DNA of 64,000 bases from Mycolicibacterium parafortuitum. GTDB lineage: Bacteria; Actinomycetota; Actinomycetes; Mycobacteriales; Mycobacteriaceae. The translations under genes were made by a program, and so were the position numbers. The stretch spans positions 4,030,001 through 4,094,000 of the forward strand of contig NZ_AP022598.1 in the NCBI RefSeq assembly GCF_010725485.1. Reading direction: 5' to 3'. Below the pieces are notes generated by a model that was not told the origin of the DNA, ran no database searches, and was given only the letters and a program-made list of their open reading frames with translations. Shown in pieces: positions 12,726 through 22,374 of the stretch (position 1 is the stretch's first letter; the number at the start of each line of letters is the position of its first letter).

Positions 12726-12799
12726 CGGGCTGTGGCGCAGCTTGGTAGCGCACTTGACTGGGGGTCAAGTGGTCGCAGGTTCAAATCCTGTCAGCCCGA
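12726..12799 (+). tRNA. tRNA-Pro (anticodon GGG)
   Basis: A 74-nt cloverleaf. The acceptor stem CGGGCTG pairs exactly with CAGCCCG. The anticodon stem CTTGA/TCAAG encloses the loop CTGGGGG with anticodon GGG at 12,760-12,762. The T arm contains GGTTCAAATCC and the D arm AGCTTGGTAGC. The discriminator is A and CCA is not encoded. Its 3' 42 bases are part of the 45-bp repeat that recurs at 22,330, so the present 3' end was supplied by the integrated element and the gene stays functional. Confidence 0.97.
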
Positions 12800-12802
12800 C
12801 GC
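12758..12802 (+). repeat. attL, 45-bp direct repeat copy
   Basis: This 45-bp stretch, from the first base of the anticodon loop to 3 bases past the tRNA-Pro end, recurs without mismatch at 22,330-22,374. It marks the left junction of the element. The repeat keeps the tRNA intact at this end. Confidence 0.96.
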
Positions 12803-12807
12803 AGGTC

Positions 12808-12842
12808 AAAGGCGGTTTCCGATCACCGGGAACCGCCTTTTT
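12808..12842 (+). terminator. Intrinsic terminator after tRNA-Pro, carried by the element
   Basis: A 10-bp stem (AAAGGCGGTT at 12,808-12,817 with AACCGCCTTT at 12,831-12,840) followed by more T residues. It lies inside the element, just past attL, and so replaces the tRNA's original terminator, which now sits beyond attR at 22,380-22,416. Confidence 0.8.
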
Positions 12843-12850
12843 CATGCCCG

Positions 12851-12871
12851 TACCCAAACGCTATACCCAAA
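12851..12871 (+). promoter_or_regulatory. Candidate integrase arm sites, left end
   Basis: Two direct copies of TACCCAAA at 12,851-12,858 and 12,864-12,871, followed by CCAGG, lie between attL and the integrase stop codon. A nearly identical pair, also followed by CCAGG, lies at 22,191-22,210 near attR. Tyrosine integrases of phages bind short arm-type repeats outside the core, so these are good candidates; binding is inferred. Confidence 0.6.
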
Positions 12872-12877
12872 CCAGGA

Positions 12878-14017
12878 TCACAGGCCGAGCGCAGCGCCGA
12901 GGCCGTCGACCGCTGCCCGCGCAGTGTCGTCGGATGTGTGGCCATAGAGGTCGCCGGTGATCGCGATAGACGAGTGCCCGAGCAGGTCGGCCGCGGCCTT
13001 GATATGAACTCCCGACTCCAGCCACGCGACCGCTGCAGAGTGGCGCATCGTGTGCGCGCCGACGCCCTCGATGCCGGCCTTCTTGGCAGCCAGTTCGACC
13101 GTGCGCAACAGGTTGCGAGGATCCACCATCGTGCCGAACTCGGTCGCAAACACCACCCCGGTATCGGTCCACAGGTCGCCCGCCGCTAGGCGCTCCTCGA
13201 GCTGCTGAGTCCGCCACGCCTTGAGCGCGGCCACCACTCCGGAATGCAGCGGCACACGACGTCGCGACCGATCGGTTTTCGGCTCGGTCAGTACCAGGTC
13301 GCCGTCGACCCGGGACAGTGTGTGCCGGACCGTCAGTTCGCCCTTCTGCAAGTCCACGTCCGACCACAGCAGGCCGGCTACCTCGCCGCGGCGCAGACCG
13401 GTAGTCGCCATAACGAGCACTGCCACGTAGTAGCGCAGGTCGCGCGCCGCATCGAGCAAGCGCGCGACGTCGGCCGCCGATAAGTACTTCGCCTCTCGGT
13501 GCGCGACCGCGGGCCGCTTCACCTTGGCCGCGGGATTCGATGCGACCAGGCCGTCCCGGACCGCGACGTCGAGCGCCTGGCGCAGCACCGCGTACACCGC
13601 CCGCACCGTCGAATCCGAGAGCTCGTCGCCGCGCAGTTTCACAATCAGCGCCTCGATGTCGGACGGCTTCAGCCTGTCCAGCCGCTTGGCCCCGATCGTC
13701 GCGCCTTCGAGGTGCTTGCGGCTCAACGTGGCGTAGAGCGATTTCGTCGTAGCCTTGCGGTCCGAGGCCGCCAGGGACGTTTCCCGCCAACGCTCCAACC
13801 AGGAAGTCAGGGTGTCGGGCGCATCTTTGGCCGGCTGGCCGTCTTCGAGCCGCCGCCGGACCTTCTTCAGCTCTTTGCGGCACTCAGTCGCCGTCGTCGC
13901 GTAGACCGAAACGGATCGCCGTTTGTCGGTGGCTGGGTCTAGATAGGAGACGCGGCCCTCCCAGCGACCGTTCGCGCGCTGCCGCACGTTGCCCTCCCCG
14001 TTCGCGCGTTTCGTCAT
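12878..14017 (-). CDS. Tyrosine integrase of the element (left)
   Basis: A 379-residue phage-type integrase. The N-terminal arm-binding domain (GEGNVRQRANGRWEGRVSY) is followed by a SAM-like core-binding domain and the catalytic domain. The catalytic domain has Arg in TGLRRGEVAGLLW, a Lys in EPKTDRSRR, HTMRHSAAVAWLE (His, Arg), LLGHSSIAITGDLYGH (His) and the nucleophilic Tyr in that last block. The frame extends upstream to 14,398, but ATG at 14,017 is chosen because GGGGGG precedes it and the conserved N-terminus starts there. It reads towards attL and is divergent from the excisionase-like gene, the usual integrase/RDF arrangement. It should catalyse integration at tRNA-Pro. Confidence 0.95.
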   Translation of the reverse strand: MTKRANGEGNVRQRANGRWEGRVSYLDPATDKRRSVSVYATTATECRKELKKVRRRLEDGQPAKDAPDTLTSWLERWRETSLAASDRKATTKSLYATLSRKHLEGATIGAKRLDRLKPSDIEALIVKLRGDELSDSTVRAVYAVLRQALDVAVRDGLVASNPAAKVKRPAVAHREAKYLSAADVARLLDAARDLRYYVAVLVMATTGLRRGEVAGLLWSDVDLQKGELTVRHTLSRVDGDLVLTEPKTDRSRRRVPLHSGVVAALKAWRTQQLEERLAAGDLWTDTGVVFATEFGTMVDPRNLLRTVELAAKKAGIEGVGAHTMRHSAAVAWLESGVHIKAAADLLGHSSIAITGDLYGHTSDDTARAAVDGLGAALGL

Positions 14018-20691: not shown

Positions 20692-20903
20692 AGGTCAAGA
20701 CGATATCGGCACGCACTGCCAGTTGAGCTGACCTTAGCCCGAGTGTCGCAACTCAGAAAGCGCCCTCTGTCATGACGCAGGTTGCGCATCTGGCGAATGC
20801 ACTCACCGCATAAACGATGCGTTCAGCGGTTGGATCTTGCGCACAGCGAATAGTTCGAAAATAGCTGTTTACCAATGGATTACCGCGATCTAATGTCTTA
20901 AGT
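20692..20903. other. Divergent promoter region of the cargo operon
   Basis: A 212-base gap between the leftward cargo operon and the rightward small gene at 20,904. It is A/T-rich for this genome, with TTCGAAAATAGCTGTTTACCAATGG and CTAATGTCTTAAG near the rightward start. It probably holds promoters in both directions. I see no clear operator palindrome beyond TTCGAA. Confidence 0.4.
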
Positions 20904-21206
20904 ATGACCGCTCAGCACATTGCCTCGGCGCGGGCCGCAGCAACCATGCATCCACCCGCGGATGCCTTTCGTGTATTCGATTGGGAACATCACGACGGAC
21001 TCTCGACGCGCGAGTTCGTCGGCCGAACCCGCGAGGCGGCCGGGTTCCTCGTCACCGTCGAAGGTGTCCAGCGGTCCAACGACACCTGCCGGCGCTGGCT
21101 CACCATCGAGGCACCCAACCGCGGCGAGCTACTCGACCCCGAGATCGCGCGCCAGCTCACCGCCGCGATCAACGCCGCCGCCGACGAAATCGACGCGTTG
21201 AGATGA
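20904..21206 (+). CDS. Small element protein coupled to the second recombinase
   Basis: A 100-residue protein of unknown family. The centre (REAAGFLVTVEGVQRSNDTCRRWLTIEAPNRGELL) looks like a small alpha/beta domain, followed by a helix (EIARQLTAAINAAADEIDAL). Its stop overlaps the ATG of the right-hand recombinase by 4 bases, so translation is coupled. A role in controlling that recombinase is possible but unproven. Confidence 0.65.
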   Translation: MTAQHIASARAAATMHPPADAFRVFDWEHHDGLSTREFVGRTREAAGFLVTVEGVQRSNDTCRRWLTIEAPNRGELLDPEIARQLTAAINAAADEIDALR

Positions 21207-22135
21207 CCAGCGGGCCCGTCCGATACACGCTGCCACCCGCGTGGGAGACCGCGATCCGCGGCTGGGTGGGCTGGCTCAAGCTCGGCGGAATGGCACCATC
21301 AACGGCCGCCCTCCGACGCGGCCACATCCGCGCCTTCGCACGCGTATCCGAGCTCAGCGCACCGAGCGATGTGACCGTTCCGCTCGTCGTCGCCTACTGC
21401 AGCGGCCGGTCCTGGTCCAACGACCACCGCAAGAGCGTCCGCGGCTCCCTCGTCAGCTTCTTCGACTGGTGCGTCGACAACGGCCTCGCAACCGCCAACC
21501 CCGCCGCCAGCCTGCCGAGAGTGCCCGGAGCCAAGCCGAGGCCACGACCGGCCACCGACGAGATATGGAACGACCTGCTGTCTTCCGCAGGCCCGCGCGA
21601 ACGCATGATGGCGCGCCTGGCCGGTGAGGTCGGGATGCGGCGCGCTGAGGTCGCGGTGTGCCAGCGTGAAGACCTCGTGCGCGACACGGACGGGTGGTCG
21701 CTCATCGTGCACGGCAAAGGCGGAAAGCAGCGCGTGGTCCCCGTGACGGACAGCCTCGCGGAGGAGATCCGCGAGTTCTGTCCCCGCGGGTTCCTGTTCC
21801 CGTCGCGCGACCAGTGGGGCAACCTGCTTTCGCCGCACGTGTCGGCGGACTGCGTGGGCCGTCTCATCTCCGCTCTGATGCCGCCGGGCTGGTCGATGCA
21901 CAAGCTGCGGCACCGCTTCGCCACCCGCGGACTGGCCGGCACCGGGAACTTGATCGCGGTCCGGGACGCCCTCGGCCACGCCAGCGTTGCCACGACGCAG
22001 ATCTACACCGCAGTGGCACCCCGCGCTGTCCGAGCCGTTGTGGAGGCCCCCGCCGACGAACGGATCGCCCCACGACCACCGCACGGAGTGGGCAACGTCG
22101 TCAGCCTGGGCGACCGCAGGCGCGACGCAGGCTGA
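21203..22135 (+). CDS. Second tyrosine recombinase of the element (right)
   Basis: A 310-residue XerC/D-like recombinase without the AP2-type arm domain of the left integrase. The core-binding domain covers residues 10-95 (GWVGWLKLGGMAPSTAALRRGHI). The catalytic residues are all visible: Arg in VGMRRAEVAVC, Lys in GKGGKQR, HKLRHRFATRG (His, Arg), LGHASVATTQIY (His) with the nucleophilic Tyr at its end. ATG at 21,203 overlaps the upstream stop; a longer frame from 20,981 lies inside that gene. It reads towards attR. Two apparently complete recombinases in one small element are unusual; they may act together, or this one may serve a second function such as dimer resolution. Confidence 0.9.
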   Translation: MTSGPVRYTLPPAWETAIRGWVGWLKLGGMAPSTAALRRGHIRAFARVSELSAPSDVTVPLVVAYCSGRSWSNDHRKSVRGSLVSFFDWCVDNGLATANPAASLPRVPGAKPRPRPATDEIWNDLLSSAGPRERMMARLAGEVGMRRAEVAVCQREDLVRDTDGWSLIVHGKGGKQRVVPVTDSLAEEIREFCPRGFLFPSRDQWGNLLSPHVSADCVGRLISALMPPGWSMHKLRHRFATRGLAGTGNLIAVRDALGHASVATTQIYTAVAPRAVRAVVEAPADERIAPRPPHGVGNVVSLGDRRRDAG

Positions 22136-22190
22136 ACGGCGGCGAAGTGTACGGCCGCGACCACCGCGGCACGGTCAAGTGGTCGCGCCG

Positions 22191-22210
22191 TACCCAAATC
22201 TGTACCCAAA
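22191..22210 (+). promoter_or_regulatory. Candidate integrase arm sites, right end
   Basis: Direct copies of TACCCAAA at 22,191-22,198 and 22,203-22,210, followed by CCAGG, mirror the pair at 12,851-12,871. They lie about 120 bases inside attR. Just upstream, 22,173-22,186 repeats 14 bases of the att core (GGTCAAGTGGTCGC). Confidence 0.6.
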
Positions 22211-22329
22211 CCAGGTCGGAAATCCGCCTGAATCCGCTACTGTCCGCCAGCGTCCGTAGCTGTCGAATCATGCTGTCCCGCAGGGCAATAGTGAGCAGTC
22301 GCGAACATGTGCGAACATGCTTGCGATGC

Positions 22330-22374
22330 CTGGGGGTCAAGTGGTCGCAGGTTCAAATCCTGTCAGCCCGACGC
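22330..22374 (+). repeat. attR, 45-bp direct repeat copy
   Basis: Identical over 45 bp to 12,758-12,802. Here the 5' half of the tRNA is missing, so this is only the displaced 3' fragment of the original tRNA-Pro gene. Confidence 0.96.

What the first reader, a model, noticed from the sequence alone, without database searches (positions are those of the whole stretch)
12726..22374. Satellite-like element with head genes but no portal, terminase or tail
Seen: exact 45-bp repeats at tRNA-Pro, integrase, excisionase-like gene, capsid protease, capsid, scaffold-like gene and HNH in 9.6 kb, with no portal, large terminase, tail or lysis gene. Known: phiRv1/phiRv2 and capsid-encoding satellites use a helper phage for the rest. 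Inference: this is a mycobacterial satellite that would form its own heads with helper tails.
Basis: partly seen in the sequence, partly recalled or inferred. Interest (0 to 1): 0.75.

Follow-up and report, generated by a model that had tools for sequence, protein, structure and literature searches.

The report
Phage satellite with portal-less capsid genes
A 9.6-kb piece of parasitic DNA in a mycobacterium carries genes for a virus shell and a packaging site like that of certain phages, but no recognisable genes to fill, tail or release a virus particle, so it probably rides on a helper phage.

Summary
In detail: exact 45-bp repeats (12758-12802 in tRNA-Pro, 22330-22374) bound an element with integrase, protease, HK97-fold capsid, scaffold and HNH genes; no terminase, portal, tail or lysis gene was found. 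It belongs to a family: 24 repeat-bounded elements (10.9 +/- 0.6 kb) from Mycobacteriales and two viral contigs, 0 of 24 with large terminase or portal by tblastn. Capsids of 38 such loci form one branch (100/100) apart from nine relatives in phages and terminase-bearing prophages, and are under purifying selection: a maintained lineage, though 3 of 28 genomes have broken copies. New: a non-coding site after HNH (18650-18780) matches the cohesive ends (cos) of actinobacterial phages. A model from seven phages' joined ends finds it in the window (E=1.8e-8) and in 19 of 24 elements, never in 248 kb of flanks. Best reading: a cos-type satellite that makes shell proteins and borrows helper terminase, portal, tail and lysis. 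Candidate mycobacterial PICIs are already published (Abad 2023); the cos site and split protease/scaffold appeared in none of my literature searches. Mobilisation is unproven.

The parts
12726..12800 (+). tRNA-Pro(ggg), integration target (attB remade at attL)
   Evidence: ARAGORN; Rfam RF00005 65.3 bits
12758..12802 (+). attL core, 45 bp
   Evidence: exact repeat; Giles-type phages carry the same 50-bp stretch beside their integrase (Daegal and Wishmaker 100%, Giles 98%)
12878..14017 (-). tyrosine integrase, 379 aa
   Evidence: PF00589 4e-27, phrog_1 2e-71; 51% to Giles-type integrases
14171..14386 (+). excisionase-like HTH, 71 aa
   Evidence: PF12728 27.3 bits (cut-off 27), phrog_66 0.0047
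14443..15198 (+). replication-initiator-like gene, 251 aa
   Evidence: phrog_2447 2.5e-9, phrog_3171 3e-9
14721..14856 (+). five 22-nt iterons inside the replication gene; probable origin
   Evidence: the 5 homologues looked at also hold repeats with at least one 22-nt step, of other sequence; no control genes were run
15156..15371 (+). zinc-finger protein, 71 aa
   Evidence: PF24623 1.9e-6
15368..15748 (+). unknown, 126 aa
   Evidence: no family match; 57% homologue in L031
15745..16155 (+). conserved helical plus winged-HTH protein next to the capsid genes, 136 aa; packaging or operon regulator (inferred)
   Evidence: phrog_2474 5.7e-5, phrog_57 terS 0.002; AF2 pLDDT 81; generic MerR/BldC-type wHTH
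16155..16742 (+). head maturation protease domain, 195 aa; conserved GH and RS(V/I)E motifs kept
   Evidence: phrog_3894 1.5e-53; alignment; = residues 16-158 of the 480-aa Schnabeltier protease
16745..17632 (+). major capsid protein, 295 aa
   Evidence: PF25209, phrog_1650; HK97-fold by AF2/Foldseek
17667..18146 (+). scaffold domain, 159 aa
   Evidence: PF10123 C-terminal part, phrog_3894 336-432; = residues 322-458 of the Schnabeltier protease
18210..18647 (+). HNH endonuclease, 145 aa
   Evidence: phrog_1808 3e-41; 69% over 77% of its length to phage Rem711 HNH
18650..18780 (+). cos packaging site; model core 18664-18749; predicted nick region 18703-18715 between GTGAC (18698-18702) and GTCAC (18716-18720)
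   Evidence: phage-only HMM E=1.8e-8, leave-one-out satellite HMM E=2.7e-14, top hit in 64 kb; nick region by analogy with phage ends, sequence
18761..19654 (-). unknown, 297 aa; probable cargo
   Evidence: no Pfam, PHROG or PADLOC match; 32% homologue in element L037
19651..20691 (-). unknown, 346 aa; probable cargo
   Evidence: no Pfam, PHROG or PADLOC match
20904..21206 (+). unknown, 100 aa
   Evidence: DUF6429 below cut-off
21203..22135 (+). second tyrosine recombinase, 310 aa
   Evidence: PF00589 5e-17
22330..22374 (+). attR core, 45 bp
   Evidence: exact repeat

Best explanation
An integrated phage satellite of the cos type. Shown by sequence: it sits in tRNA-Pro between 45-bp att repeats; it has integrase, an excisionase-like gene, a replication gene with iterons, and an operon for protease, capsid and scaffold, followed by HNH and a cos site of the kind found at the ends of certain actinobacterial phages. 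Inferred: on infection or induction by a helper phage of that cos type, the element excises, replicates from its own origin, makes capsid shell protein (alone or mixed with helper protein), and the helper's terminase cuts the satellite's cos and packs it through the helper's portal; helper connectors, tail and lysis complete and release the particle. Likely helpers resemble Schnabeltier, Rem711 or prophi100A-2 (cos plus related head genes); Giles-type phages share its cos type, integrase type and attachment site. (The confidence is for 'cos-type satellite'; the first and third rivals are versions of it and overlap with it.)
For: Cos: an HMM from the joined ends of seven phages finds the window site (E=1.8e-8) and sites in 19 of 24 elements at E<0.01, each inside the element and on the capsid strand, with 0 hits in 247,828 bp of flanks. 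The satellite-built HMM straddles the end junction in 7 of 10 phages tried and lies just upstream of TerS in prophi100A-2 and in prophage L053. Family: 24 repeat-bounded elements, mean 10,892 bp, SD 639; large terminase 0 of 24, portal 0 of 24, lysis 0 of 24, while prophages L053, L090 and L092 give terminase and portal hits. Capsid tree: 38 element rows against 9 rows from phages and terminase-bearing prophages, one branch, 100/100. Capsid dN/dS 0.036-0.197 in the 11 pairs measured. Of 28 genomes with this capsid, Portal_Mu was found in 1 and a match to the prophi100A-2 TerL in 2. Iterons. HNH 69% to Rem711 while the capsid is 37%.
Against: No experiment; no helper is shown, and the host genome has none of the phage families searched. 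Five of 24 elements lack a cos hit at E<0.01 with the phage model (L033, L041, L062 none; L036 0.09; L037 1.0). The seven phages of that model were the ones of ten that matched the satellite model first, so the two tests are not fully independent. Besides the window, the window's HNH was found in 1 of 23 elements. L052 and L054 have the capsid but no protease or scaffold. Capsid copies are broken in 3 of 28 genomes (G077 and G152 a stop, G152 and G288 = L054 in pieces), and the protease frame of L041 looks shifted, so some members are decaying. The closest capsid relative (L031, 80%) has no tRNA att pair found within 40 kb. The window lacks the 125-aa gene (phrog_673, 'head scaffolding') that 21 of 24 have between protease and capsid, so its own shell module may be incomplete. 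The capsid model has mean pLDDT only 68.
Confidence: 0.78

Rival explanations
1. SaPIbov5-like capsid remodelling: the element's capsid protein joins the helper's capsid protein and forces small or otherwise changed heads; it never forms a shell alone.
For: SaPIbov5 Ccm is a capsid-protein homologue that replaces helper protein at pentamers, giving T=4 procapsids (PMC8569155, passages read). Element L052 and viral contig L079 have a capsid gene but no protease or scaffold hit; L054 too, but its capsid gene is in two pieces. L052 and L054 branch first in the tree. The window lacks the 125-aa gene found in 21 of 24.
Against: 22 of 24 elements, the window included, have their own protease and scaffold, with dN/dS below 1 in each pair measured (0.125-0.340 and 0.063-0.654), which a mere remodeller would not need; the capsid is only 37-39% identical to the nearest phage capsids, so co-assembly would be demanding.
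Confidence: 0.35
2. Decayed prophage: a full phage that lost terminase, portal, tail and lysis genes.
For: Capsid, protease, scaffold, HNH and cos derive from phages; small mycobacterial elements were suggested to be decayed by Fan et al. 2014 (PMC3986857, passages read); some relatives have broken capsid genes.
Against: One capsid branch of 38 rows with a long stem and no phage row inside; similar size; uninterrupted capsid copies in 25 of 28 genomes (one of the 25 is the prophage genome G219); purifying selection; the same rearranged gene order in several genera.
Confidence: 0.07
3. Satellite that packs several copies (concatemers) into normal helper heads; the capsid genes serve interference or a host function.
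For: PICMI satellites pack concatemers without remodelling heads (PMC10803314, passages read); 10.9 kb is close to a fifth of a 47-54-kb phage.
Against: A maintained capsid, protease and scaffold cassette argues for use in assembly.
Confidence: 0.15
4. The conserved non-coding site is only a transcription terminator with a T run, not cos.
For: It has short inverted arms and a T7 run after the operon.
Against: It aligns across the physical ends of seven phage genomes with the junction in the same place; Mbo4's record marks a 14-nt 3' overhang exactly between the two arms; RNA folding is no better than for shuffled sequence, z 0.88.
Confidence: 0.04

Closest known systems
Candidate mycobacterial PICIs, including phiRv1 and phiRv2 (Abad et al. 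2023, PMC10654092; abstract, section 9 and passages read)
   Same: Integrase plus major capsid gene, small, tRNA sites for tyrosine integrases; proposed there to be satellites; some carry replication and scaffold genes.
   Different: That paper defines them by integrase plus capsid; the words cos site, cohesive, packaging, portal and helper do not occur in its main text. Some of its elements have a terminase gene; none was found in the 24 here. phiRv1/phiRv2 proteins were not compared.
Capsid-forming PICIs (cf-PICI)
   Same: Own capsid and protease, HNH, integrated, small, would take helper tails.
   Different: cf-PICIs encode portal, connectors and both terminase subunits (as described in PMC10690885, passages read); none of these was found in the window.
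cos-type SaPI SaPIbov5 with capsid homologue Ccm (PMC8569155, passages read)
   Same: Cos-type satellite, own capsid-protein homologue, helper portal.
   Different: Here protease and scaffold come with the capsid gene; host group, genes and sequences differ.
Gram-negative PICIs with Rpp and helper-like cosN (PMC9026076, passages read)
   Same: Helper-like cos and a 139-154-aa winged-HTH packaging protein; a 136-aa winged-HTH protein is encoded here.
   Different: Domain order is reversed here, no homology shown, and the gene is not next to cos.
Streptomyces satellites MulchRoom/MiniFlayer (PMC10690885, passages read)
   Same: Actinobacterial satellites with own capsid genes.
   Different: They carry terminase, portal and adaptor, show no primase, and have virulent helpers.

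Membership tests
Candidate mycobacterial PICI (Abad 2023) | integration machinery plus a major capsid gene in one region | tested here: met
cf-PICI | own major capsid protein and head maturation protease | tested here: met
cf-PICI | own portal protein | tested here: not met
   0 of 24 elements by tblastn with 3 control prophages positive; none among the 25 families shown of 56 PHROG and of 29 Pfam families for 50 large ORFs of relatives
cf-PICI | own large and small terminase | tested here: not met
   terL 0 of 24, terS 0 of 24 (terS rang in 1 of 3 controls); the window's HTH gene has only a weak terS match, E 0.002
cf-PICI | head-tail connectors | tested here: not met
   none in the window; 1 of 24 elements, L033
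PICI (general) | att-bounded, small, integrase, replication genes, no lysis or tail (feature list recalled) | tested here: met
PICI (general) | helper-induced excision and transfer | not testable with these tools
   needs experiment
PICI (general) | master repressor (Stl-type) beside integrase (recalled) | tested here: inconclusive
   only an HTH_17 excisionase-like gene at 14171-14386 was seen
cos-type satellite | cos site of helper type | tested here: met
   (by sequence; no cutting assay)
Defective prophage | close DNA similarity to an intact phage | tested here: not met
   about 61% over the capsid gene and 71% over HNH to the phages held; the whole element was not searched by DNA against all phage records
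phiRv1/phiRv2 group | homologous capsid, protease and HTH proteins | not tested
   no phiRv sequence was fetched

The most novel reading that the evidence does not exclude
A third way to be a satellite: instead of only remodelling helper heads (P4, SaPI) or building whole heads (cf-PICI), this lineage builds a small shell with its own protease, capsid and scaffold, the phage protease-scaffold fusion being split around the capsid gene, and borrows the helper's portal vertex and terminase by carrying the helper's type of cos. It would be an old lineage spread across Mycobacteriales.
Probability: 0.45. Interest if true: 0.75.

Novelty: new variant of a known kind. Interest (0 to 1): 0.62.

Why it matters
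Abad et al. [quoted passage not shown] The cos site turns that into a concrete test: it names the packaging signal, its likely cut position, and phage groups (Rem711 and Giles types grow on M. smegmatis) whose terminase may recognise it. It also raises a structural question, namely how a capsid only 39% identical to the nearest phage capsids could accept a helper portal, and it gives a cos profile for finding satellites and helpers in actinobacterial genomes.

Tried and rejected
Decayed prophage: rejected on tree, selection, size and gene order (see rivals). Terminator reading of the site: rejected because it spans phage genome ends. TerS identity of the conserved HTH gene: searched by PHROG (terS E 0.002), AF2 and Foldseek; the best hits are BldC-type domains (E 0.09), with lambda gpNu1 (1j9i), another packaging HTH (7lw0) and Rpp (6hn7) at E 0.30-0.36, so it is left open. 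Defence function of the two minus-strand genes: no PADLOC match. The single-sequence scan of genome contigs found nothing; the alignment scan found 18 loci. Plasmid records: no capsid match. A direct blastn of the cos region against phage records gave 4 records, all weak and unrelated in place; profile search was needed. Luke (Giles type) was picked as an end without related head genes and matched the cos model all the same. Empty site: 36 of 41 genomes, the own one included, matched the joined flanks, mainly by the tRNA and left flank; no match to another genome ran more than 36 nt past the join, so no clear empty site was seen and insertion rests on the att repeats. Solved structures: none for the capsid profile, and only weak unrelated matches (E 0.17 and above) for the scaffold. 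Rows dropped: the tree left out L055, L077, L078, L083-L088 and named copies of loci already in it; genomes G274 and G287 (short contigs) were not read beyond; the count of 24 leaves out loci without an accepted repeat pair (L031, L032, L034, L038, L045, L050, L055 and others).
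Full report
What was checked. The 45-bp repeats at 12758-12802 and 22330-22374 are exact and, apart from a 33-bp tandem at 14890, the only exact direct repeats of 24 nt or more in the window. The first is the 3' part of tRNA-Pro(ggg). Between them lie the genes listed in 'parts'. Of the proteins taken from four reference phages (prophi100A-2, Schnabeltier, Rem711, GMA4), only protease, capsid and HNH hit the 64-kb window at E<=1e-3; terminase, portal, connector, tail and lysis proteins do not.

Host genome. The genome is a single 6.04-Mb contig with one copy of this capsid gene. No match to PF04860, PF03354, PF10145 or PF05133 (control genomes rang). No match to PF06074 (controls silent, but genome G219 rang), nor to two TerL proteins (Schnabeltier, without a control; prophi100A-2, with G219 ringing). 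So none of the searched signs of a full prophage is present; other portal or terminase families were not searched.

A family of portal-less elements. In 297 genomes of the genus, 28 have a capsid match at E<=1e-10, the own one included; 25 of the 28 have an uninterrupted copy and 3 a broken one. In 397 genomes of the order, 6 match, again with the own one. Twenty-kb stretches were read around 25 of the 27 other genus matches. One of these, L053, is a prophage with terminase, portal and tail genes. Direct repeats at tRNA ends bound 17 of the 25 as elements of 10.2-12.6 kb (L055, with a repeat pair but the capsid outside the usual place, is not counted). Named genomes added Gordonia otitidis, Williamsia muralis, Tsukamurella spumae and M. 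kyorinense (tRNA sites), and IMG/VR added two contigs with 52- and 72-bp terminal repeats and no tRNA found. With the window that makes 24 bounded elements, mean 10,892 bp, SD 639, range 9,572-12,613. By tblastn at E<1e-3: terL 0, terS 0, portal 0, major tail 0, minor tail 0, lysis 0, connector 1 (L033), tape measure 1 (L052) of 24; protease 22, scaffold 22, capsid 24, the 125-aa 'head scaffolding' gene 21, the window's HNH 2 (window and L036) of 24. The three control prophages gave terminase and portal hits. Fifty ORFs of 280 aa or more from 22 of the elements (not the window; integrase, capsid, protease and scaffold matches taken out) were scanned by profile. Of 56 PHROG and 29 Pfam families matched, the 25 shown in each list held no terminase or portal; the families not shown were not seen.

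Gene order. The phage protein of 416-480 aa combines protease (residues 16-158 in Schnabeltier) and scaffold (322-458). In these elements the two parts are separate genes on either side of the capsid gene. PF10123, matched by the scaffold gene, is the Mu protease family, in which (recalled) the C-terminal part is the scaffold. The protease keeps the conserved GH and RS(V/I)E motifs (their catalytic role is recalled, not tested). The window and its closest relative L031 lack the 125-aa gene between protease and capsid.

Descent and selection. A maximum-likelihood tree of 47 capsid proteins puts all 38 element rows on one branch (100/100) apart from 9 rows of phages and terminase-bearing prophages, with a stem of 0.95 changes per column. 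One of the nine, in MalagasyRose, is annotated as hypothetical next to another gene called major capsid protein. Fourteen of the 38 rows come from loci without an accepted repeat pair, several cut by contig ends; none of them gave a terminase or portal hit in the DNA held. dN/dS of the capsid gene is 0.036-0.197 in the 11 pairs measured, of which two share a member; other genes reach higher values (conserved HTH gene up to 0.691 and scaffold up to 0.654). The nearest phage capsids are 39% identical.

The cos site. A comparison of non-coding DNA showed a conserved stretch after the HNH gene. A profile from ten element sites also matched the right end and left start of the Schnabeltier record, and the place just before TerS in prophi100A-2 and prophage L053. 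Joined ends of ten phages were then tested as a 6-kb set: Schnabeltier (8.9e-15), Walrus, phiT46-1, Luke, Toast, Rem711 and Mbo4 (2.2e-4) matched across the junction; MalagasyRose, GMA4 and Nandita did not. The Mbo4 record marks a 14-nt 3' overhang exactly between the two dyad arms. As a less circular test, a profile from the seven matching junctions alone was run on the 24 element loci: 19 of 24 elements had a hit at E<0.01, each inside the element and on the capsid strand, and 0 hits fell in 247,828 bp outside. In the window this profile gives one significant site, 18664-18749, E=1.8e-8; a satellite profile built without the window gives E=2.7e-14 at 18654-18751. Most sites lie 1.4-3.2 kb after the capsid start; in L035 and L042 they lie 2 kb before it. 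As RNA the stretch does not fold better than shuffled sequence.

Replication and integration. The replication gene holds five 22-nt repeats with steps 34, 36, 22, 22. The five homologues examined (L044, L047, L048, L049, L054) also hold repeats with at least one 22-nt step but different sequences; no control genes were run. This resembles the origin inside lambda gene O (recalled). The integrase is 51% identical to Giles-type integrases, and the att core matches the same phages over 50 bp, 98-100%. The HNH is 69% identical to that of Rem711, against 37% for the capsid. Rem711- and Giles-type phages thus share signals with the element and are candidate helpers or rivals; this is inference.

Structure. 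The capsid model (mean pLDDT 68) matches HK97-fold shells, with encapsulins and HK97 proheads among the best hits, E 1e-7 to 1e-6. The conserved 136-aa protein is a helical hairpin plus a winged HTH (pLDDT 81), with only generic matches.

Mechanism. Inferred steps: helper entry, excision by integrase and Xis, replication from the iterons, synthesis of protease, capsid and scaffold, cutting at the element's cos by helper terminase (possibly aided by the element's HNH, which in Walrus and Toast lies beside cos), packaging through the helper portal, and completion by helper tail and lysis. Whether shells are pure or mixed is open. The narrow size range fits unit-length packing in a small shell but could also fit concatemers.

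Known and new. Small mycobacterial prophage-like elements were listed by Fan et al. 2014 (PMC3986857, passages). Abad et al. 2023 (PMC10654092; abstract, section 9, passages) call integrase-plus-capsid regions candidate PICIs, include phiRv1/phiRv2, and say induction is not yet shown. cf-PICIs are described in PMC10690885 (passages) by a full head and packaging set that this element lacks. Ccm of SaPIbov5 (PMC8569155, passages) is the nearest mechanistic precedent for a satellite capsid protein with helper portal. Searches for mycobacterial satellites with cos sites (two papers hold all terms; PMC10448857 was not opened) and for related terms listed no title or abstract start describing the cos site or the split protease in such elements. 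Only listings and the passages named were seen, only open-licence papers are held, and the original cf-PICI paper is not among them.

Noticed in passing
L052:11124-15266: An 11.4-kb element with capsid and cos but no protease, scaffold or portal hit carries a 1380-aa ORF in the stretch that matches phage tape measure protein (50% over residues 214-667 of Rem711's), an odd thing for a satellite.
   Followed up: partly
L045, L050: Their protease resembles those of Rem711 and prophi100A-2 (the latter ClpP-like by Pfam) instead of the Schnabeltier type, suggesting protease swaps within the cassette.
   Followed up: no
relatives in alignment A2: Cargo of relatives includes TIR, restriction enzyme, DNA methylase and AAA/Abi-like domains, as in defence hot spots; which element holds which was not resolved.
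   Followed up: no
L046:7668-7756 and 11006-11079: Two cos-like sites in one element, one of them weaker.
   Followed up: no
L031: The closest capsid relative (80%, genome of 6,181,092 bp) has the cassette and cos but no tRNA att pair and no homologue of the first integrase within 40 kb; only a homologue of the second recombinase at 41%.
   Followed up: partly
window 21203-22135: A second tyrosine recombinase next to attR; homologues (29-41%) lie within the 20-kb stretches of several relatives. Its role is unknown.
   Followed up: no
window 11143-12768 and 22450-25055: Flanking host genes look by eye like a photolyase/cryptochrome-type protein on the left and a membrane protein plus arsenic-resistance genes on the right; not tested.
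   Followed up: no
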